This document shows positions 21,250 through 62,475 of a DNA stretch of 64,000 nucleotides, one piece after another. Source of the stretch: Dyella marensis (lineage in GTDB: Bacteria; Pseudomonadota; Gammaproteobacteria; Xanthomonadales; Rhodanobacteraceae); NCBI RefSeq assembly GCF_900112865.1, contig NZ_FONH01000002.1:292713-356712 (forward strand), read 5' to 3'. How positions within the stretch are numbered: position 1 is the first letter of the stretch; every line of letters starts with the position of its first letter. The notes beneath the pieces were generated by a model that was not told the DNA's origin, ran no database searches, and saw only the letters and a program-made list of their open reading frames with translations. Position numbers and translations under genes: made by a program.

Positions 21250-21269
21250 TGGTGCCCGGAGCGGGGACC
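21250..21269 (-). other. Candidate attachment site: tRNA 3'-end-like remnant
   Basis: On the minus strand the sequence reads GGTCCCCGCTCCGGGCACCA. It resembles a tRNA 3' end: T-stem strand CCCGC, acceptor strand TCCGGGC, discriminator A and CCA. The matching 5' acceptor (GCCCGGA) is typical of some tRNA-Leu genes, but no tRNA body precedes it, so this is only a fragment. Such remnants mark the distal end of elements inserted in a tRNA gene. The intact tRNA would then lie at the other prophage end, outside the window. Confidence 0.45.
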
Positions 21270-21385: not shown

Positions 21386-22321
21386 CTAGGCGGCAAGCTG
21401 GTGTTCGTAGTACGGCCGCGGCCGATCATCCAGGATTGCGTAGAGCGACTGCAGGTCGCGCGGATCCGGGTTGAGCCAGGCATCCAGGTTTTCTGGCTTG
21501 ATGGGGACGATGCAGCGGTCGTGGCCGGCGGCCAGCACTTCGGGCGGCGGCTCGTCGGTGATCGCCGCGAATGACCAGAGCTCGTCGCCGTCCCGGTCCG
21601 TGGTGTGCGACCAGAGGCAGGCCACCAGCATGTCCTGCGGAGGGTTCGGGGTGAACTGCAGCACCACGTTCTTCCCCTCGCGCTCCACGTTCTCGTAGAA
21701 CGTAGTGACGATCATGATGCCGTGGTGGTAGCCGAAGAGCTTCGACCAAGCGCTTTCCAAGTTGTCCCTGCGCGCATTGTACGTGCCGGGGTACTTGCGC
21801 TCGATTGCCACATTCCAGCCGGGCAACCGGCACTGATAGCGCATGGGGATCACGCGACGCAGGCCGGTCTTGGCGTCAGCGATCATCACCGGGGCGTAGC
21901 TGCCCGGGTAAATTCGCGAATCCTTCGGGTCCGGCTCCGCGCGGCGCAGGTCGTCCAGGTTGCGCTGGGCCGCCTTCACTTTGTTGCCGGCGATGCGCTG
22001 GTCCTCCGTGGCCTTCTTGGTGGGCTTCGGACTGGCCAACACCGCCTCGGCCTTGGCCAGTCGCTCCTGCTGGGCGGCCAGCTCGGCCACCAACTTCGCC
22101 TCGAGCTCCCGGTCGCCCTCGGCCACGATCTTGGCCAGCTCGAACCCTTCCTCGCTCGCAGGCTTCCGGAAGGACTCGCGCATTGCCCTGGGCAACTTCG
22201 TCCAGCCGCCATCGGCGCGCTTCTCCACGAAGAGCTTAACGAACTCATGGATGTCCATGACCGCGCCGAACAGGCGCACAAAAGCGGCGTAGTCAGCCTT
22301 CACCTGGGCGGAATAGCACAT
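21386..22321 (-). CDS. SRAP-domain protein (YedK/HMCES family, SOS-response-associated peptidase)
   Basis: A 311-residue SRAP protein. Family enzymes crosslink to abasic sites in single-stranded DNA through the N-terminal Cys2, present here as MCYS after Met removal. Other landmarks are YNARRDNLES (Asn-Ala-Arg), TFYENV (Glu) and AGHDRCIVPIKPENLDAWL (catalytic His). It is about 90 residues longer than E. coli YedK because of a charged helical insertion (about 70-135). It is the leftmost prophage gene and has its own terminator. Confidence 0.88.
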   Translation of the reverse strand: MCYSAQVKADYAAFVRLFGAVMDIHEFVKLFVEKRADGGWTKLPRAMRESFRKPASEEGFELAKIVAEGDRELEAKLVAELAAQQERLAKAEAVLASPKPTKKATEDQRIAGNKVKAAQRNLDDLRRAEPDPKDSRIYPGSYAPVMIADAKTGLRRVIPMRYQCRLPGWNVAIERKYPGTYNARRDNLESAWSKLFGYHHGIMIVTTFYENVEREGKNVVLQFTPNPPQDMLVACLWSHTTDRDGDELWSFAAITDEPPPEVLAAGHDRCIVPIKPENLDAWLNPDPRDLQSLYAILDDRPRPYYEHQLAA

Positions 22322-23177: not shown

Positions 23178-23825
23178 CTACAGATTGGTCACGTCGATCA
23201 CGAGAGCCGTCATTAGGTTCGCCGACAGCACCGGCGTGTCGCCTGACGTGAGGTCCTGCACGATGAGCAGGTTCTGGTTGACCACGTTGCTGGCAACCTG
23301 GGTGAACACCGCGCGCACGTTGAAGCCCTCCACCCGCGCCGATCGAAAGCCGCGGATGACGTGTGCCACGGCATAGGCGCGCCCCGCGGTGCCGGCGAAG
23401 ATAGTCGTGCCCGTCGCATTTTGGACGAACCCGACCACCCGCATCGGCCCCGCGCTGGCATCAAAAATCAACTGGCCGGCTGCGTTCCACACCTGCAGGC
23501 CGAAGCCGTGCGCCGGCGGTGCCCGCGGCACGTCGAAGATGTAATAAGGAACCTGGGTTCCGAGTGGCCCAGCGACGGAGATATTGAAGCCGATCTGCCC
23601 GGCGCCGTAGAAAGTCTCCGGCCTGGCATAAAGCGATCCACCCACGCAAATGATCGGCGAAACGAGATCACTGCGCGGCCCGATCGTCCCGTAGGTTACC
23701 GACGCGCCGTAGAGCGACTGATTGGTGGTGAGAGTCCCCTTCTCCACCAGAGACAAGTTCGCATACGTGTTGTCGACCTGCGCGACACCACTATCGCCAT
23801 AGACGGTAAACCCTGCGTCAGCCAT
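23178..23825 (-). CDS. Phage tail-fibre-associated protein
   Basis: A 215-residue beta-rich protein in the receptor-binding region. The motif GLQVWNAAGQLIFDASAGPMRVVGF is shared with the next gene (GIQVFNAAGQLIFD) and echoes the C-terminus of the J homologue (LLQVFDSAGTLRVRL). A fibre tip or fibre-associated role is inferred from position and repeat motif. It lies 1 nt from its neighbour. Confidence 0.7.
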   Translation of the reverse strand: MADAGFTVYGDSGVAQVDNTYANLSLVEKGTLTTNQSLYGASVTYGTIGPRSDLVSPIICVGGSLYARPETFYGAGQIGFNISVAGPLGTQVPYYIFDVPRAPPAHGFGLQVWNAAGQLIFDASAGPMRVVGFVQNATGTTIFAGTAGRAYAVAHVIRGFRSARVEGFNVRAVFTQVASNVVNQNLLIVQDLTSGDTPVLSANLMTALVIDVTNL

Positions 23826-25500: not shown

Positions 25501-28500
25501 TTACCAGAGGCCGAGGCGAACGCGCAACGTGCCCGCTGAGTCGAACACCTGCAGGAGCTGGTTGGTGATAGAGAGCCGACCGCCGCCGCCGGAGCCATTT
25601 AGCTCGAAGCTATTGCCGCTCTTGCTGATGCGCCAACCCGTGACGCCGGCGACGTAGTCCGTCGACTGGATGACATCGCCGATCATGGCGTTGGTGATCC
25701 AGCCGGTACCGATCAGCGCCTGCGAAATGAACACCTGGCCGCCCTGGATGACGAAGGGAAGCGTGGTCACGCCGTTGGCCACATTGATGACCGCGAAGCG
25801 ATCGGCCTGGAACAGCACCTGCGACTGGTAGGTGCCGTCCGCTTGCTGCTCCACGCCCAAGCCCATGCCGGCGCCGTAGATGTGGCCATCGGCTGTGACC
25901 TGGCATCGCACGCTCCACGTCGCGCTCACCCTGCCGTTCAAGTCGACCACCGTGGTCGCCGTCTCCTGGACGATGGCCGTGGTGTCATCCACCGTCGCCT
26001 GCACGGTGTCGACGCGCGCCGCCATGGCCATGTCGCCCTCCTGCTGGGCCGTCAGCTGCGACCACACGCCGGCGTAGCGCGTCCTGCTGCCGGCGAACTT
26101 CGAGGCCGAACCGGCCATTTCCGGCGTCATCTGCTGCACGGCGCCGAGGATCTCCTGGCCAAGGTTCGTGTCTTCGATCAGGCCGGCGATGATCGGCTCG
26201 TAATCGGCCGGGTTGCTGCTCGCCTGGCCGTGCACGCCGGCGCCGATCGGGTAGTACGCCCCGATGTTGCCGGTCTTGTCGACCAACCGAGCCCAGAAGT
26301 AGAACGAGGCGCCAGCCGCAAGCCCGTCCATCTCCAGCGTGTTCTGGGGATAGGCGAGATCCGCCATCTTCGTGGCGTCGGCCAGGTTCGGCGTGTTGGA
26401 GCGCCACACCTCCGTGCGTAGGGTGTCCTCGGCGCCAGCCGGGAATGCCCACTGCAGGTGGATGCCCCAGACCTTCGTCGCCGCGGTCAGGCTGGCCACC
26501 ACCGGCGGCGCGCCCGTCTTGCCCAGGACGTCGGTCAGCGGCGACAGCGCTGGCACCGACGCGATGCCGCCCGGGCTGATCGCCCGCACACGCGCCAGGT
26601 AGCTGCCAGTGTAGATCCCCTGCACGTCGGCCGACTGGCCGGAGACCTGGCCAGCGCTGACCCACTCGCCATCATCCTTGCGCCATTCGACCTGGTAGCG
26701 CTGCGCGCCGGCAGCCGGCGTCCAGCTGATCGTCATGACGTTAGTGGCGATGCCCTGGGTGATCACCACATGGCTGGACAGCACCACGTCGGTCGGCGGA
26801 GCCTGCAGGTTGGCCGGCAACTGGCTGATCGGCGGCAGCTGGATGATCGTGCCGTTGTCGATCGCCTCGAACTTTTCCGGGACGTGCTGGCTACCGGTAA
26901 TGGTGAAGGTCAGCGCGTCGCTGGACTTGTCCTCCCCGACCGATTGCACGCGGACCAGCTGGTTGACCAGCGTGGTCGATTCGACAGTCCACACCGCCTC
27001 CGCCGCCGGCAACTCCGTGAACACCGGCGAAACCTGGATGTTCCTGCCGTCCACGTTGAGCACCGTGCGCGTCTGGGAGACGCCCGAGGGCAAGACCACA
27101 GTCATGCTGTCGCCGGCCACCACCGCGTCGGGGGCGCGGTCCACGGTCACCACGGAGGTCGTGGCCACGGTGATGCGGCCGCCCTGCCGCTTGCCCGCGC
27201 GCGCCGGATCCTGCACGCGCACAATCTGCCCGGGCGCCGCCATCGCGCCGTCCAGGCCTACCTGGAAGGTGATGGTGTCGGTCTCCAGCTGCGAGGTCAG
27301 CAGCACCCACATGCCGGCGCGCTGAGCCTGGCCCTGCGAGGTGCAGCCGAAAGCGGTGATGGCGGTGGGCTGGATGCCGTAGCGCGCCAGGCCGGCCTGG
27401 TGCTGCACATACTCCACCTTGGCGCGGTACATGTCGGCCGGGTCGTTCCAGGTGACTTGGGCGACCGTGTAGCGGGTCTTCCGGGTCGTGGCCGAATAGG
27501 TGAACTTGCCGCCGATGACGTTCGCCGCGGTGTAGGCGTACACCGGATCTTGCGGCATGTCGGCGGCCACACCGATCGCGCCGCTCGCCCAAAAGCTGAT
27601 GCCGCGGAACAGGCTGGCCAAGTCGGAGAGCAGCTGATACGCGTCGCTGTCCGTCTGCAGGTACACATTGCAGGTGAAGCGCGGCTCAGTGCCGCCCTTG
27701 CCGTCGCTGACGGCCTGGTCACAGTACTGCGCGATCCGGTACAGATCCCACTTGTTGACCTGCGCCGCGGTGATCAGGTGGCCGAGGCCGTAGCGTGGGT
27801 GCGTGGCGAGGTCGTAATAGATCCACGCCGGGTTGTCGGTCCAGGCCAGCTTGAACGTTCCGTCCCAGGCGCCGGTGTAGGTGCGCGCGTGCGGGTCGTA
27901 GTTGGTCGGCACCTGGATGATGCGGCCCCAGAGGTCGTAGCCGCGCGCGGGGATGTTCGAGAACTGCGAGGCATCGCCGCTGATGGCGATCAGCGCAGTG
28001 TTAGGGTAGCGAAGCTTTGCGTCGATGATCTCCGTGTAGCTGTCGATCGTCGTGGTGTCGGCGATAGTCGAACTGTTGGCATTGGCCGTGAGGCGCGTGA
28101 CGCGCACGTTCCAGCCGACAGTCGCCGCCGGCAGATCCACGCGGTGCTCGCGCTGGTACTTGGTGGTGGTCTTGCCGGTGATCGCGCCGCTGTAGGCGAG
28201 CTGATACGCACCGCCGTCGGTCTGCACCTCGATCTTGTAGGAGATCGAGTAGCCATTGATGTCGCCGTTGGAGGTGTTCGCCTTCGACAGCTGCGGCACG
28301 CTGATCGTGATGCCGACGGCCGAAAGCTCCAGGTTCGTCAGCGAGCGCACCCACGGCGCCACCTGCTTGAGCTCCACGCCGACAGCCACTTCGTTCTCGA
28401 CGGCGGCATAGCCGGGAATGACGTCCTGGTCCTGGGTGCCAGTGCGCTGGTCGACGTGCACATTCTGGAAATTGAGGGAGCCATCGGCGTTGGCCAGCGG

Positions 28501-28674
28501 AGTCTCGTCCAGGTAGATCGACTGCAGGCCGTTGACCAGGCCGCCGATCTCGCCCTCGCTCACGGCATCAAGGATCCGGAACGATGCGATCGAGCGCAGG
28601 CTATCCGGCGACTCCACCGGCGTGCGCTGACTGCCGCCACCCTTGGCGCCTTCGATGAGATGCGGGTTGGCCAT
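25501..28674 (-). CDS. Tail tip attachment protein, lambda gpJ homologue
   Basis: A 1057-residue host-specificity protein at the distal tail tip. The N-terminal region includes RSIASFRILDAVSEGEIGGLVNG, the standard gpJ opening. A central tail-hub part with DLWGRIIQVPTNYDP and TYTGAWDGTFK follows, then fibronectin-type III modules (about 600-800). A C-terminal beta section ends LQVFDSAGTLRVRLGLW. Gene order after the I homologue matches lambda. Confidence 0.93.
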   Translation of the reverse strand: MANPHLIEGAKGGGSQRTPVESPDSLRSIASFRILDAVSEGEIGGLVNGLQSIYLDETPLANADGSLNFQNVHVDQRTGTQDQDVIPGYAAVENEVAVGVELKQVAPWVRSLTNLELSAVGITISVPQLSKANTSNGDINGYSISYKIEVQTDGGAYQLAYSGAITGKTTTKYQREHRVDLPAATVGWNVRVTRLTANANSSTIADTTTIDSYTEIIDAKLRYPNTALIAISGDASQFSNIPARGYDLWGRIIQVPTNYDPHARTYTGAWDGTFKLAWTDNPAWIYYDLATHPRYGLGHLITAAQVNKWDLYRIAQYCDQAVSDGKGGTEPRFTCNVYLQTDSDAYQLLSDLASLFRGISFWASGAIGVAADMPQDPVYAYTAANVIGGKFTYSATTRKTRYTVAQVTWNDPADMYRAKVEYVQHQAGLARYGIQPTAITAFGCTSQGQAQRAGMWVLLTSQLETDTITFQVGLDGAMAAPGQIVRVQDPARAGKRQGGRITVATTSVVTVDRAPDAVVAGDSMTVVLPSGVSQTRTVLNVDGRNIQVSPVFTELPAAEAVWTVESTTLVNQLVRVQSVGEDKSSDALTFTITGSQHVPEKFEAIDNGTIIQLPPISQLPANLQAPPTDVVLSSHVVITQGIATNVMTISWTPAAGAQRYQVEWRKDDGEWVSAGQVSGQSADVQGIYTGSYLARVRAISPGGIASVPALSPLTDVLGKTGAPPVVASLTAATKVWGIHLQWAFPAGAEDTLRTEVWRSNTPNLADATKMADLAYPQNTLEMDGLAAGASFYFWARLVDKTGNIGAYYPIGAGVHGQASSNPADYEPIIAGLIEDTNLGQEILGAVQQMTPEMAGSASKFAGSRTRYAGVWSQLTAQQEGDMAMAARVDTVQATVDDTTAIVQETATTVVDLNGRVSATWSVRCQVTADGHIYGAGMGLGVEQQADGTYQSQVLFQADRFAVINVANGVTTLPFVIQGGQVFISQALIGTGWITNAMIGDVIQSTDYVAGVTGWRISKSGNSFELNGSGGGGRLSITNQLLQVFDSAGTLRVRLGLW

Positions 28675-28736: not shown

Positions 28737-29387
28737 TCAGATGTCGTAGAAGTTCTTCTTGAAGCTTCCCAGCGGCGTGCCGGTGCCGACGCCGCCGCTC
28801 GCCGGCGCGTAGTCCTCGGCGCGAATGCCGGCAGAGATCACCGCCGAACCGACGATCATGCGGCCGTACAGCAGCGGCACCGGGTTGCCCTGCGCCTGCG
28901 TGTTGACCGAGCCATTGAAGACGTACGACGGCTGGTTCTGTGGCGAATCGGCCTGCTTGAGGCCCTTCGGCTGCGGCGACAACATCTGCACCAGGCCGCC
29001 GGCGGCCATGCCGATGCCGGTGCTCAGCAGGTATGCCGCGGTGACCTGACCCACGCCTGGGATGAATGAAATGGCGATAAGTGCCGCGCCAAGAACGACA
29101 TTGAATAGGCCGCTTTTCTTGCTGCCGATGATGACCGGCGCAATGCGGATCGGGCCATCGCACGGCTTCAGCAACTCATCCTCTTTCAGGTTCTTTGTTC
29201 CGAGGAACACCGTAAATCCAAGGCCATTTCCTCTGGCTGAGGCCATGAATTCAGCGAAACCATCGAGCTGCGACTTGAGCGCAGAGATCGCCTCGCCGAC
29301 CGTGTTCGTGTCGAGGTAAAAGTGGAAGCTACGGCCAAACCTTTGGCGCAATACCCCGTAGAGAATGATCTCGCGTGCTGTCGACAT
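28737..29387 (-). CDS. Tail assembly protein, lambda gpI homologue
   Basis: A 216-residue protein starting MSTAREIILYGVLRQRFGRSFHF with a ubiquitin-like N-terminal part. A membrane-like glycine-rich segment (VVLGAALIAISFIPGVGQVTAAYLL) and NPVPLLYGRMIVGSAVISAGI follow, as in lambda gpI-like proteins. The start at 29387 follows a GGAGAAACT sequence. In lambda I follows K directly; here a foreign ATPase gene separates them. Confidence 0.88.
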   Translation of the reverse strand: MSTAREIILYGVLRQRFGRSFHFYLDTNTVGEAISALKSQLDGFAEFMASARGNGLGFTVFLGTKNLKEDELLKPCDGPIRIAPVIIGSKKSGLFNVVLGAALIAISFIPGVGQVTAAYLLSTGIGMAAGGLVQMLSPQPKGLKQADSPQNQPSYVFNGSVNTQAQGNPVPLLYGRMIVGSAVISAGIRAEDYAPASGGVGTGTPLGSFKKNFYDI

Positions 29388-29402
29388 AGTTTCTCCTGGC
29401 AC

Positions 29403-29425
29403 AAAAAAACCCGCGCGATGGCGGG
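29403..29425 (-). terminator. Terminator downstream of the AAA+ ATPase moron
   Basis: CCCGC-CATCGC-GCGGG followed by TTTTTTT on the minus strand, 39 nt past the ATPase stop codon and 16 nt before the I start. With the promoter at 30737-30766 it brackets the inserted gene. Confidence 0.8.
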
Positions 29426-29463
29426 CTTTCAATTTTCTAGGTGTCTGCTCAGATCGCGCGCCG

Positions 29464-30708
29464 TTAGAGGTCGAGTTTGCCGGACCTCTCTTGCCTTTCC
29501 TCTTCAGAGGAACCATCGGCCCGGAGACCATCAACGTAGCCGCGCATGACCACGTATGGGCGCATTAGTGGGCTAACAAACCTGTAGCGCCACCTGCGAT
29601 GTTGTCCATCCCGTACAAACACCGGACCACGGTCCGGTTCACAAAAAGCCTTCAGGTGTTGGGCAAAATTCGCAATATCGATATCGCGGTTGAGGATCTG
29701 GCTTAGCGGCTCCCGTACTGCCACAGGCGTAAAACATCCTAGCTCATCAAGCTCCGCAAGCGCGCACGCAAGCAGGACCTCTCGATAGATATTCCCAGGC
29801 TGGTGACTCTTCGTCGCTGCATAATAGTCGCGCTTGATCGATTCGTGCCATTGATCTAGCGAAGCCTCGATGCCTAACCTGACGTAGCCGGCATTGACAA
29901 CTTCGGAGCCCGCGCGAAGCGCGGCGTCCGAGCTATGCAGCCCAAGCAAATGCGCCACAAATGGCACGCCTTGGGCGAGTTCAATAATTCGTTCTTGTGC
30001 TTGGATGTTGAAGTTTATTCCAAGCACTTGGCTGCCCTTATCCAGAATCTGCCGAATCTCGTCGGAAGACATCCTCGGCATTGGAATTTGGACCAGCGCG
30101 CGTTCGATGGACTGGTGCCCTTCAATGAGCTGCTCCACCGAATCCGCGACTCCAATGATCAAAACAGTAGCATTCACACCGTAGTCTGAGAGCGCTTTGA
30201 TCGTGTCCGAAATAAGCGTGGCAGATTGGCGGTCTTGGATGCGATCGAACTCATCTAGCACCACGATCACCGGCCGCTCCCTCGCGGCCGCCTCTAACAA
30301 TCGACGCACGTCGTCAGGATTTGCTACCGCAGGCAGGTATTCGGAAAGTGGTGTCGTTAAGTGCTCACTTGGATTGGCGAAACCTGCTGGGGTCCGCTGT
30401 GAATTGAACGTGATTTCCCGTAGCGCCTTCCTCCAAACCGACGTGAAGGTGTCTCCGGCATCGCAAGTGACCCGAGCGACGATCTGACCATGTTGCTGGA
30501 AGGTCCGCGATGCCACGTTGGCCAAAGACGTCTTTCCAACGCCGCGCTCACCGAAAAGCACAACGTGGAACCCCCGTTGCCCGGTGGCGGTGAATATTCG
30601 ATGCATCTGCGTCAGGCGACCGGCGAACAGGTCGGCGTTATTCACTGGTGCACCAGGCGTAAATGCCTGATTAAGCCGCATCAATTTCGCAATTACGCTG
30701 GCATCCAT
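29464..30708 (-). CDS. Stand-alone AAA+ ATPase (ORC/Cdc6-like), accessory gene inside the tail module
   Basis: A 414-residue AAA+ ATPase. Walker A is GERGVGKTS (53-61), Walker B IVVLDEFDR (148-156), sensor-1 region VLIIGVADS (182-190) and a likely arginine finger lies in SIERALVQIPM (R203). A helical lid and a C-terminal part (DRGPVFVRDGQHRRWRYRFVSPLMRPYV) that looks winged-helix-like follow. It is not a tail gene: it interrupts the K-I junction, is visibly less GC-rich than its neighbours, and has its own promoter and terminator. The family occurs as isolated bacterial genes. A defence or lysogenic-conversion role is inference only. Confidence 0.88.
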   Translation of the reverse strand: MDASVIAKLMRLNQAFTPGAPVNNADLFAGRLTQMHRIFTATGQRGFHVVLFGERGVGKTSLANVASRTFQQHGQIVARVTCDAGDTFTSVWRKALREITFNSQRTPAGFANPSEHLTTPLSEYLPAVANPDDVRRLLEAAARERPVIVVLDEFDRIQDRQSATLISDTIKALSDYGVNATVLIIGVADSVEQLIEGHQSIERALVQIPMPRMSSDEIRQILDKGSQVLGINFNIQAQERIIELAQGVPFVAHLLGLHSSDAALRAGSEVVNAGYVRLGIEASLDQWHESIKRDYYAATKSHQPGNIYREVLLACALAELDELGCFTPVAVREPLSQILNRDIDIANFAQHLKAFCEPDRGPVFVRDGQHRRWRYRFVSPLMRPYVVMRGYVDGLRADGSSEEERQERSGKLDL

Positions 30709-30736
30709 GGCGCATCCTCACCGGTACTTGCCGGCA

Positions 30737-30766
30737 ATGCTAAAAGTATCTGCGCCAATGCGTCAA
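30737..30766 (-). promoter_or_regulatory. Candidate promoter of the AAA+ ATPase gene
   Basis: On the minus strand TTGACG (30766-30761), an 18-nt spacer and TAGCAT (30742-30737) lie upstream of the ATG at 30708. A perfect palindrome TTGCCGGCAA (30728-30737) overlaps the expected start of transcription and could be an operator. A GAGG ribosome-binding site precedes the ATG. Confidence 0.5.
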
Positions 30767-30819
30767 GTTTTGATGGAAAAGCACCAAGTAAAATGACAAA
30801 TGTCCAAAGTAGATGGTGG

Positions 30820-31572
30820 CTACACGACCGTTGAGAGGTGCCTTGCCGCCAACACGGCCGTCTCCAGCCAGTAACCACCAAATACTTCGCGGCAGGAAAG
30901 TCGGCTGTGCATGTGGTGCAGCATGTTGCCATCGCCCAGATATACGCCGGCATGGTTCGGAACCAGATTGCGGCTGCGCACCTGCATCAGGATAAGGTCG
31001 CCGCGCTGCAGCGGCGGGGCCGTGCTCTCCCCCTTACGCCAGACCACCCGGAAGCCCGCGCCAACCAGCGCGGCATCACCGTAGAGGTTCGACTGGCCAT
31101 CGTCCCACCAGCCATCGGCGCGCGGCGGGCTAGGCAGCGCCAGGCCCCACTCCATGGCGTACCAGTCGCGGCACAAGGTCCAGCAGTCGAGCAGCCCGTG
31201 CACGAACGGGCGGCCCACCAGCGGCGGCACATAGCCGGCCGGGTTGAGCCGCAGCATGTCGTTCGGCTTACCGTCGGGCATGCCGATGATGTACCAGGGC
31301 AGGCCCGAGACCTCGCACATGGCCCTGTCCTGCTCACTGGGCCGCGAGGCGGCGTCTGGGTGGCTGTGCACCACCGACACCACCTCGCCGGCGTCCTCGG
31401 CCGCGGCGTAGTCCTCCGGGTGCAGCACGAAGTGCTCGGTGGCGTCGGTCGCCATATTCCGGCACGGCCAGAAGCGCTCCTTGCCCTTCTCGATCACCAC
31501 CAGGCCGCAGGCCTCACGCGGGTACTCGGCCGCCGCATGCGCGCGCGCCGCGTCCATCGTCGTGTCGTTCAT
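30820..31572 (-). CDS. Tail assembly peptidase, lambda gpK homologue (JAB/MPN + NlpC/P60)
   Basis: A 250-residue two-domain protein. The N-terminal JAMM domain has the full metal site H69, H71, S79, D82 (VVHSHPDAASRPSEQD). The C-terminal NlpC/P60 domain has its cysteine in GLLDCWTLCRDWY and histidine in VPNHAGVYLGDGNMLHHM. In lambda-like phages gpK acts in tail tip assembly and probably cell-wall penetration. It overlaps the L homologue by 4 nt. Confidence 0.92.
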   Translation of the reverse strand: MNDTTMDAARAHAAAEYPREACGLVVIEKGKERFWPCRNMATDATEHFVLHPEDYAAAEDAGEVVSVVHSHPDAASRPSEQDRAMCEVSGLPWYIIGMPDGKPNDMLRLNPAGYVPPLVGRPFVHGLLDCWTLCRDWYAMEWGLALPSPPRADGWWDDGQSNLYGDAALVGAGFRVVWRKGESTAPPLQRGDLILMQVRSRNLVPNHAGVYLGDGNMLHHMHSRLSCREVFGGYWLETAVLAARHLSTVV

Positions 31573-59621: not shown

Positions 59622-60080
59622 TCAGCCGCCCTCCCCAGCCGCGGCCTCAGCAACCACGACCGCAGACTGCCAGCCGATGCTCGGAGCGACCTTGCCAGCC
59701 CCAATCACGCGCGACGCCTGGACGCCCGCCAGAAAGCAATCGAGGACCTGGTCGGCCGTCAGCTCGTTCTGCGTGGCATAGTTCCGGATGCGCACCAGGG
59801 CGCAATCGAGTTCACTGATACCTGCGGGCAAGGGAGAGGCTCCATGGCTACCAAGCGGACGGCAATAAACGTCATTGACGACCTCGGCCAGCGAACGGTC
59901 GTGTACGAAATCACCAGCGAGATTTCCGTCGGCACCTTCGCTGACCCTCACGCCAAGATGTCCGGTCTGGCCGAGTACCGGCTCGCTGACGGCACCCCGC
60001 TCAACGTCATCAGAGGCGGCTTCGAGATTCCCGGCGGCAAGCGCCGCTTCATGCGCACCTAGCGGTCCGAGAGCGCCCAT
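59622..60080 (-). CDS. Possible early protein, partly antisense to a plus-strand gene
   Basis: The 152-codon open frame starts MGALGPLG directly after a TGATG overlap, like the gene at 58773-59162. Its first half is antisense to a better-looking plus-strand gene. Only the last 57 codons (RIRNYATQNELTADQVLDCFLAGVQASRVIG), from a GTG at 59795, look clearly protein-like. It is either a short gene at 59622-59795 or a longer gene disrupted by insertion. Confidence 0.4.
   Translation of the reverse strand: MGALGPLGAHEAALAAGNLEAASDDVERGAVSEPVLGQTGHLGVRVSEGADGNLAGDFVHDRSLAEVVNDVYCRPLGSHGASPLPAGISELDCALVRIRNYATQNELTADQVLDCFLAGVQASRVIGAGKVAPSIGWQSAVVVAEAAAGEGG
59844..60062 (+). CDS. Small hypothetical protein (plus-strand accessory gene)
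   Basis: A 72-residue protein MATKRTAINVIDDLGQRTVVYEITSEIS, with LAEYRLADGTPLNVIRGGFEIPGG. It is beta-rich and typical of small conserved hypothetical proteins of proteobacterial mobile DNA. AGGGAGAGGCTCC before the ATG is a strong ribosome-binding site. It stops 18 nt before the shared junction block. Confidence 0.62.
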   Translation: MATKRTAINVIDDLGQRTVVYEITSEISVGTFADPHAKMSGLAEYRLADGTPLNVIRGGFEIPGGKRRFMRT

Positions 60081-60709
60081 CAGTTGCCCTCCCCGTGCGC
60101 GCCGGGCTTGCGGTCGGCCAAGCGCACGACTTGGGTTGTGGTCTCGTCGGCGAGCGCCTGCGCTGCCTGGTGAGCGAGGCTGGCCAGCACGCCCTGGGCA
60201 TCGGCGATGCTCGCGAGGAACGGCTTCAGGTGCGGCCGGTCGAGGTGGTTGATCACGCCGTCCTGAGCGATGGGCGCGAACGTCTCCATCACCTGAGCCA
60301 CGGCCTTCATCAGCGTGGCGGCGTTGGCCTGGAAGTCGGCGATGTGCACGGCGCGCGCCGGCAACAGCCCGTACCGGGCGGCCAGTTCGCGCAGCGCCTG
60401 CTCCCGGTACGCATCCGGCAGCGACATCACCCAGCCCTCTTCCAGGTCCGCTGGGAACGTCTTCACCGTGCCCTTCATCAACCGCTCGATGATCTGGCGG
60501 TTGTGCTTCTCGTCTTCCTCCATCCGGTCAGCGTTCGTCGCGCTGGGCTGCCGGAGGTTGGTGTTGACCGAGGACTCGGGGGTGTTGAGAAAGTAGTACG
60601 CCACCACCGCCCGGGAGAAGCCGGTCAGGCTGATCGCCTTGGCGTCCCACGCCGCGCGCGCGATGCGGCAGACCAGCTCCGACCGGGTCTCATGAGTAAA
60701 GGTACTCAT
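60080..60709 (-). CDS. Early regulatory-region protein of unknown function
   Basis: A 209-residue, largely helical protein starting MSTFTHETRSELVCRIARAAWDAKAIS. NRQIIERLMKGTVKTFPADLEEGWVMSLPDAYREQALRELAARYGLLPA is a pattern seen in phage proteins encoded just after cro-like genes. Position is that of CII or YdaT in lambda-like and Rac-like prophages, but homology to either is not clear. Confidence 0.7.
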   Translation of the reverse strand: MSTFTHETRSELVCRIARAAWDAKAISLTGFSRAVVAYYFLNTPESSVNTNLRQPSATNADRMEEDEKHNRQIIERLMKGTVKTFPADLEEGWVMSLPDAYREQALRELAARYGLLPARAVHIADFQANAATLMKAVAQVMETFAPIAQDGVINHLDRPHLKPFLASIADAQGVLASLAHQAAQALADETTTQVVRLADRKPGAHGEGN

Positions 60710-60714
60710 GGCGC
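60703..60714. repeat. 12-bp direct repeat, left copy (TACTCATGGCGC)
   Basis: TACTCATGGCGC covers the start codon of the 209-residue gene on the minus strand. The identical 12-mer recurs at 61266-61277. The two copies flank the plus-strand HTH gene. Confidence 0.8.
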
Positions 60715-60817
60715 TACCCCGCTTAGCTGCGGCCAACTGGTCAGGTCGTCATAGCTGGTCGACCTACAGGCTAGCCGCGTAATCTTTGCCCAAACACTGA
60801 ACAGGGGAACTAGGAGC

Positions 60818-61633: not shown

Positions 61634-61662
61634 AGTAAACACTGTGTTTAGTCGGCAGTCAA
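61634..61662 (-). promoter_or_regulatory. Promoter of the cro-like gene (PR-like)
   Basis: On the minus strand TTGACT (61662-61657), a 17-nt spacer and TTTACT (61639-61634). Operator 1 overlaps the spacer and -10, so repressor binding would block it. Expected transcription start is at or next to the ATG at 61626. Confidence 0.65.
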
Positions 61663-61736
61663 CACCTTGTTTACTTGGGAAACGAAATGTTTATTGCGCG
61701 CCTGGGTGATGTAAACAACCATAAACAAATGGTTGA
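61636..61736. promoter_or_regulatory. Immunity operators O1-O3
   Basis: Three related 15-bp palindromes: TAAACACTGTGTTTA (61636-61650, perfect), TCAACACCTTGTTTA (61659-61673) and TAAACAAATGGTTGA (61722-61736). The third matches the reverse complement of the second closely. Consensus TAAACA-N3-TGTTTA. They are likely bound by the CI-like and Cro-like proteins. Confidence 0.7.
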
Positions 61737-62475
61737 TACACGCGCTTCGGCCTCAAATGAGTCCCAGCGGACTGCCTTGGAGCACCGCTTCAAGGCATTC
61801 CTGGATCTGGCCGGCTTTACTCGTCCCGAGTTTGCCGCCCTGGAAGGGATGACACAACAGCACATCACCACCTGGCTCAGCCGAGGCCGGTTCGGGCGTG
61901 CGGCTGTCCAGCACATGCGCAACATCGCCATGATGCGGGGGATTGAGGGGTTCTCGGAAGACTGGATCAATCTGGGAACGGGCAAGCCACCGCGACATGG
62001 ACGCACGGGCGAGGAAGCCAAAGTCGACAGCGCGCCCGCGACCGAGGCTACAAATCATGCGGCTACGCCGACTCAAAATGGCGACTACGTCACCTTCGAA
62101 TTTCTCCAGGGCTATTCGAAGGAACGTATACGATTTGTTGACATTCCAGTCTGTTTACTAAACAACATTGATGCCTTGCTGAAGTCTTCTATCCGGGTGT
62201 TTATAAACCCGACTGATTCTTTGCGAGGCGTGATCGACAAGGGTGACTTGGCATTTGTAGACACCGATGTTCGGCGCGTTGAAGGCGACGGTATCTACGT
62301 CTACAAGCTCGCGACAATCCCTCAGATCAAGCGGTTCCAAATTCAGGGGCAAGGGAGTCTGCGCCTGCACGGCACGCACTCGTACGAGGATTCGATCGAG
62401 CTGTCGGCAGCGCAGATACAGGGGTTGGAAATTGGCGGGCGTGTTGTTGGGAGCATCGGCTTTTCGCAGTTCTAG
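61729..62475 (+). CDS. CI-like phage repressor with S24 peptidase-like domain
   Basis: About 248 residues. The N-terminal DNA-binding part is RFKAFLDLAGFTRPEFAALEGMTQQHITTWLSRG. The C-terminal LexA/CI-like domain has TDSLRGVIDKGDLAFVD (Ser nucleophile region) and VYKLATIPQIKRF (Lys). Loss of the usual Met after the Ser is noted. Starts at 61675 (TTG) and 61687 (ATG) are open, but 61729 fits a promoter overlapping operator 2; it has no obvious ribosome-binding site. Confidence 0.88.
   Translation: MVDTRASASNESQRTALEHRFKAFLDLAGFTRPEFAALEGMTQQHITTWLSRGRFGRAAVQHMRNIAMMRGIEGFSEDWINLGTGKPPRHGRTGEEAKVDSAPATEATNHAATPTQNGDYVTFEFLQGYSKERIRFVDIPVCLLNNIDALLKSSIRVFINPTDSLRGVIDKGDLAFVDTDVRRVEGDGIYVYKLATIPQIKRFQIQGQGSLRLHGTHSYEDSIELSAAQIQGLEIGGRVVGSIGFSQF

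What the first reader, a model, noticed from the sequence alone, without database searches (positions are those of the whole stretch)
29403..30766. Stand-alone AAA+ ATPase moron inserted between tail genes K and I
The tail operon is in strict lambda order except that K and I, adjacent in lambda, are split by an ORC/Cdc6-like AAA+ gene. It has its own promoter (TTGACG-N18-TAGCAT), a palindrome at the expected start site, its own terminator, and visibly lower GC content. It is thus likely expressed from the lysogen. Single AAA+ ATPases of this kind could act in defence against other phages or in altering host physiology; no function is known to me.
Basis: partly seen in the sequence, partly recalled or inferred. 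Interest (0 to 1): 0.72.

Follow-up and report, generated by a model that had tools for sequence, protein, structure and literature searches.

The report
AAA+ moron in tail-operon cargo slot
A dormant virus in a bacterial chromosome carries, in the middle of its tail genes, an extra gene for an ATP-driven, probably DNA-binding protein; the gap it sits in is a cargo slot that related viruses fill with other accessory genes, so the gene probably serves the host cell (most likely against other viruses), although nobody has tested it.

Summary
Confirmed: a 414-aa AAA+ gene (29464-30708, minus) separates tail genes K and I in a ~60.8-kb temperate prophage. It is not structural: of 117 distinct K-I junctions from related phages, 73 are empty (<=150 bp) and 44 carry varied cargo (mostly small lipoprotein-like genes; also HicAB, HigBA, DUF4760, DUF6414); only this prophage has the AAA+ gene. 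A strong intrinsic terminator precedes I in 42/44 cargo junctions but 3/73 empty ones, so K-I is a moron slot and the terminator belongs to the slot. The promoter match is not beyond chance (11% of shuffles), but the prophage's CI operators are absent here. The protein (model pLDDT 94.7) is AAA+ plus winged helix, matching archaeal ATPase_2 and Orc1/Cdc6 folds over its full length, with no effector domain. Its family is widespread, patchy, under strong purifying selection, and has no conserved partner gene. Relatives sit in actinobacteriophage lysogeny regions, near a DUF4238 gene, and (distant ones) at the P2 old/tin defence hotspot. Best reading: a single-gene prophage accessory ATPase, probably anti-phage (about 50%), acting by ATP-gated DNA binding. 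Function and lysogenic expression are untested.

The parts
29464..30708 (-). AAA+ ATPase gene, 414 aa: AAA+ module about residues 1-285, C-terminal winged helix about 286-392
30709..30819 (-). K to AAA+ intergenic region, 111 bp, GC 0.47; promoter-like TTGACG-N18-TAGCAT at 30766-30737 (chance level), palindrome TTGCCGGCAA at 30728-30737; no CI operator
29403..29430 (-). Intrinsic terminator between the AAA+ stop codon and the I start codon
30820..31572 (-). Tail gene K (JAB + NlpC/P60), upstream border of the slot
28737..29390 (-). Tail gene I (the longer reading frame opens upstream), downstream border of the slot
61635..61673 (.). CI operator-like repeats of the prophage (comparison: none at the AAA+ gene)
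61675..62475 (+). CI-like repressor gene, shows that the element is temperate
21250..21265 (.). Candidate attachment site: 16-bp repeat of the 3' end of tRNA-Leu(TAA), prophage left end

Best explanation
The gene is a moron held in a cargo slot between tail genes K and I of a lambda-type tail operon. SHOWN: the slot, its terminator, sporadic occurrence, conserved catalytic residues, purifying selection in the family, no conserved partner; the fold is a confident prediction. INFERRED: it is transcribed in the lysogen (the slot is closed by a terminator and has no CI operator), while in lytic growth antitermination of the late transcript lets I and J be made. INFERRED: the protein is an ATP switch of the ORC/Cdc6/STAND type whose basic winged-helix wing binds DNA and whose invariant HxSxxR arginine works across a subunit interface; ATP-dependent assembly on the DNA of an incoming phage or plasmid would block its replication or transcription. 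It has no nuclease, membrane, TIR or protease part, so it would act as a roadblock or call on a host effector. My estimates: accessory gene in a slot 0.93; anti-phage or anti-element function 0.5; DNA roadblock as the mechanism 0.25.
For: Slot and absence from relatives; terminator in 42/44 cargo against 3/73 empty junctions; other cargo includes HicAB, HigBA, DUF4760, DUF6414, lipoprotein-like genes; fold and conserved residues incl. basic wing; dN/dS 0.03-0.10 among close relatives; no partner in 127 loci; Kevin1 and Cashline copies in the tail-to-integrase region; distant relatives in the P2 A-Q defence hotspot (PMC9122126); DUF4238 two genes from the Clavibacter copy, TIR gene four from a Luteibacter copy; no CI operator nearby.
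Against: No functional test exists. Promoter at chance level. Proteins next to chromosomal copies are mostly ordinary and only a few match defence models. Being on the late-operon strand, the protein would also be made during its own phage's lytic growth, so it must spare that phage. The P2-slot relatives are only 26% identical. Very strong purifying selection is not what one expects of a fast-evolving phage sensor.
Confidence: 0.5

Rival explanations
1. Regulator: a winged-helix AAA+ protein that alters host or prophage gene expression or replication timing in the lysogen, with no role against other phages.
For: The same fold serves replication initiators and MalT-type regulators; chromosomal copies lie among ordinary genes in many phyla; strong purifying selection.
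Against: Patchy distribution, fewer than 10 of 398 genomes of the phylum with a strong match, mobile contexts, and no fixed target gene beside it.
Confidence: 0.25
2. Phage lytic-cycle helper: expressed late with the tail genes and useful for the phage's own replication, packaging or assembly, dispensable in most relatives.
For: Same strand as the late operon; late transcription must run through the gene to reach I and J; ORC/RuvB/TnsC-like folds often work on DNA.
Against: Closed by a terminator like all other slot cargo; absent from 116 of 117 junctions; relatives in other phages lie at other places, incl. beside integrase or repressor genes or on the strand opposite to late genes.
Confidence: 0.12
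3. Passenger: a recently captured gene with no benefit, on the way to loss.
For: Low GC and GC3; nearest relative is a Luteibacter chromosomal copy at 58%.
Against: Intact frame with all catalytic residues in a slot that keeps a terminator; the family is under purifying selection.
Confidence: 0.08
4. Tail structural or assembly component.
For: Lies inside the tail operon.
Against: Missing from all related phages with the same K and I, incl. L048 and L049 with K 92% identical; AAA+ fold; relatives in bacteria without tails around them.
Confidence: 0.01

Closest known systems
phrog_6841 / Mycobacterium phage Kevin1 gp30 (AAA-ATPase, PMC6544188) and Gordonia phage Cashline gp34
   Same: Full-length homologues (37-38% identity), stand-alone, in temperate phages
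   Different: Sit between the lysis or tail genes and the integrase, not between K and I; function also unknown
Archaeal Orc1/Cdc6 initiators and archaeal ATPase_2 proteins (2qen, 2fna)
   Same: AAA+ plus winged helix matched over the full length (Z 18-21)
   Different: Only 12-16% identity; fails the curated Orc1/Cdc6 and ATPase_2 profile cut-offs; encoded on bacterial mobile elements
STAND / bacterial NLR immune ATPases (e.g. nSTAND1; LypB, PMC13236601)
   Same: Passes Pfam nSTAND1 cut-off; GxP motif
   Different: No effector domain and no sensor repeats
P2 old/tin hotspot systems (PMC9122126)
   Same: Accessory genes in a phage slot; distant relatives (26%) of this ATPase sit in that very slot
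   Different: Other slot; this family has not been tested for defence
Prophage-encoded Tab and Tai (PMC10884400, PMC11364771)
   Same: Single-gene morons placed among phage late or packaging genes
   Different: Small unrelated proteins that block tail assembly and come with a counter-defence gene; tab lies on the strand opposite to the late operon

Membership tests
Phage moron (accessory gene) | Absent from close relatives at an otherwise conserved junction | tested here: met
   117 K-I junctions, AAA+ in one; L050 (K 88%) has 69 bp there
Phage moron (accessory gene) | Own terminator | tested here: met
   Hairpin plus T run before I; 42/44 cargo against 3/73 empty junctions
Phage moron (accessory gene) | Own promoter | tested here: inconclusive
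   9/12 match reached by 11% of shuffles; no excess across the slot
Phage moron (accessory gene) | Base composition unlike its surroundings | tested here: met
   GC 0.555, GC3 0.60 against GC3 0.73-0.90
Phage moron (accessory gene) | Expressed in the lysogen | not testable with these tools
   No transcriptome; no CI operator near the gene
phrog_6841 | Full-length profile match | tested here: met
   E=1.7e-43, residues 7-389, profile 16-415 of 470
Orc1/Cdc6 initiator | Curated profile cut-off (TIGR02928) | tested here: not met
   32.2 bits against 181.3
Orc1/Cdc6 initiator | AAA+ plus winged-helix fold | tested here: met
   2v1u Z 19.8, 2qby 19.7, 1w5t 19.4; the fold is shared with ATPase_2 proteins
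Archaeal ATPase_2 (PF01637) | Pfam gathering score | tested here: not met
   20.2 bits against 33.2
STAND/NLR-like immune ATPase | nSTAND1 (PF20703) gathering score | tested here: met
   42.0 bits against 27.1
STAND/NLR-like immune ATPase | Effector domain and C-terminal sensor repeats around the NTPase | tested here: not met
Defence systems of PADLOC-DB 2.0 | Full-length match to a system protein | tested here: not met
   Only weak partial matches (best PDC-S59, residues 148-246, 29.6 bits)
Anti-phage defence gene | Lowers plating of phages | not testable with these tools
   Needs a plaque assay

The most novel reading that the evidence does not exclude
A new, widespread single-gene immune system made only of an ORC-like AAA+ and winged-helix module, carried by prophages, plasmids and chromosomes of about a dozen phyla, that stops incoming replicons by ATP-dependent binding to their DNA; and the K-I junction is a general accessory and defence hotspot of lambda-type phages, marked by a terminator, that I did not find described.
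Probability: 0.22. Interest if true: 0.8.

Novelty: new member of a known kind. Interest (0 to 1): 0.45.

Why it matters
Prophage cargo slots are a productive source of new antiviral genes. The K-I slot has a simple signature (a terminator directly before gene I), so the cargo of many lambda-type prophages could be collected automatically. The ATPase family is compact, single-gene, widespread and untested, with relatives in several defence-prone sites, so one plasmid and a phage panel would show whether an initiator-like ATPase can serve as an immune protein.

Tried and rejected
Tail component: rejected, 116 of 117 K-I junctions lack it. Known defence family: no full-length PADLOC or NCBIfam match. 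Two-gene system: the most frequent neighbour cluster occurs in 7 of 127 loci. Kinship with the Sbash gp30/gp31 defence system: that gp30 is a RexA-like DUF4747 protein (PMC6426596), so set aside. Palindrome as CI operator: rejected, the operators are GTAAACACTGTGTTTA-like. Promoter signature of the slot: none beyond chance. Defence-island enrichment around chromosomal copies: weak at best, and no control set was scanned. Megablast of the tail region against phage records: no match. No lambda-phage K-I hotspot was found in the paper searches, but few subscription papers are held.

Full report
WHAT IS THERE. The reported ORF is real: 29464-30708, minus strand, 414 codons, starting with ATG 111 bp after the end of K. 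It carries GERGVGKTS (Walker A) and DEFDR (Walker B). K (30820-31572) has JAB and NlpC/P60 domains, I (28737-29390) matches phrog_32, and J (25501-28674) matches the central fibre family. GC is 0.555 and GC3 0.60, against GC3 0.73-0.90 in neighbouring tail genes.

THE PROPHAGE. The element is temperate. A CI-like repressor (61675-62475) and a CII-like activator (60080-60736) are present. Operator-like repeats GTAAACACTGTGTTTA lie beside the repressor and again just past the window. A 402-aa protein that I read as a tyrosine integrase (by eye, not by profile) lies next to tRNA-Leu(TAA), whose last 16 bp recur at 21250; the span between the two repeats is about 60.8 kb. The host family is Rhodanobacteraceae by inference: two kin genomes of the same family have contigs of the same length as named Luteibacter and Dyella records.

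THE SITE IS A CARGO SLOT. I gathered loci encoding I or K from viral contigs and kin genomes and measured each K-I junction. Of 117 distinct junctions, 73 are 150 bp or shorter and 44 hold 366-4543 bp. The closest empty site, L050 (K 88%, I 78% identical), has 69 bp; the second prophage of the same genome has about 72 bp. Two still closer relatives hold other genes: L048 a DUF4760 protein plus a lipoprotein-like protein, L049 a DUF6414 protein plus a lipoprotein-like protein. Elsewhere the cargo is mostly one small protein with a lipobox-like start (pattern match only), and in single cases HicAB or HigBA. The AAA+ gene occurs at the junction in this prophage only (two further records are the same sequence).

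THE TERMINATOR MARKS THE SLOT. A GC-rich hairpin with a T run lies directly before I in 42 of 44 cargo junctions and 3 of 73 empty ones (Fisher p about 1e-25, which overstates the case because the phages are related). The cargo differs while a terminator is always there. This is the clearest result: cargo transcription is made to stop before I. In lytic growth the late transcript must pass it, presumably by antitermination (inference from lambda biology).

THE PROMOTER IS WEAK EVIDENCE. The TTGACG-N18-TAGCAT site exists, but 221 of 2000 shuffles of the gap reach the same score, and cargo junctions overall show no excess (2 seen, 2.5 expected). No CI operator lies near the gene. Lysogenic expression is plausible, not shown.

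THE PROTEIN. An AlphaFold model from 94 homologues has mean pLDDT 94.7. Full-length matches are archaeal ATPase_2-type proteins (2qen Z 21.3, 2fna 20.4) and archaeal Orc1/Cdc6 (2v1u 19.8, 2qby 19.7, 1w5t 19.4). Invariant residues include Walker A, D152-E153, K171 and H198-x-S200-x-x-R203; G247 and P249 are 98% conserved. The wing of the winged helix carries arginines at 366, 371, 374 and 376 that are basic in 83-91% of members. No nuclease, membrane, TIR or protease part was recognised. It fails the Orc1/Cdc6 curated profile and matches no known defence protein over its length; it passes Pfam's nSTAND1 cut-off but lacks the architecture of NLR-like immune proteins.

THE FAMILY. Relatives are in three phage records (two phages), 15 plasmids, 45 viral-contig loci and 214 genome stretches, of which the best 80 were kept. 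Fewer than 10 of 398 genomes of the phylum have a strong match to phrog_6841. In a tree of 100 proteins viral and bacterial copies interleave, over about a dozen phyla; the nearest is a Luteibacter chromosomal copy at 58%. Close pairs have dN/dS of 0.03-0.10. No neighbour recurs.

CONTEXT THAT SUGGESTS DEFENCE. Kevin1 gp30 (37%) lies in the variable region beside integrase and repressor genes; its describers noted that such genes may bear on immunity (PMC6544188). Distant relatives (26%) in Salmonella and E. coli P2-like prophages occupy the A-Q interval, where P2 has old and tin and where anti-phage systems were validated (PMC9122126). The Clavibacter plasmid copy (47%) is two genes from a DUF4238 gene; a DUF4238 protein blocked T7 in that paper. 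A Luteibacter copy is four genes from a TIR protein. In phage contig L316 the gene lies opposite to, and between, portal and terminase genes, which recalls tab of JBD26, between the terminase genes on the other strand (PMC10884400). Against this, the proteins next to chromosomal copies are mostly ordinary.

VERDICT. Observation confirmed; moron reading supported and widened to a general K-I slot; structural reading rejected; defence is the leading but untested function. A new member of a known kind (prophage accessory gene in a hotspot), with a modest chance of being a new single-gene immune family.

Noticed in passing
K-I junctions of L048, L049, L063, L129, L182, L203 and others: Diverse uncharacterised cargo (DUF4760, DUF6414, possible HEPN, HicAB, HigBA, many lipoprotein-like genes) in the same tail-operon slot: a harvestable set of accessory genes.
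   Followed up: partly
window 21389-22321 and L311 6343-7539: phrog_1599 (SRAP-like) gene at the prophage end; in L311 an SRAP gene (phrog_1599, PF02586) lies directly upstream of a 60%-identical relative of the AAA+ gene.
   Followed up: no
L316 7944-9209: A relative of the AAA+ gene lies between portal and terminase genes on the opposite strand, an arrangement like that of tab in Pseudomonas phage JBD26.
   Followed up: partly
L334 7308-10028 (same prophage, just beyond the window): 906-aa protein that by eye looks like a helicase fused to a DNA methyltransferase; possible anti-restriction or defence role, not checked by profile.
   Followed up: no
window 23178-23825: Gene downstream of the tail fibre matching phrog_4062 (unknown) and weakly two membrane-associated moron families.
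   Followed up: no
L039 9046-10452 (G000:C20): Second prophage in the same genome with related K and I genes (about 61% identical) and an empty K-I junction.
   Followed up: yes
whole window, motif TTGCCGGCAA: 15 sites within one mismatch against 3.5 expected from shuffles; may only reflect GC-rich codon usage.
   Followed up: no
window 61635-61673 and L334 613-629: CI operator-like palindromes flanking the repressor on both sides, as in lambda OR and OL.
   Followed up: partly
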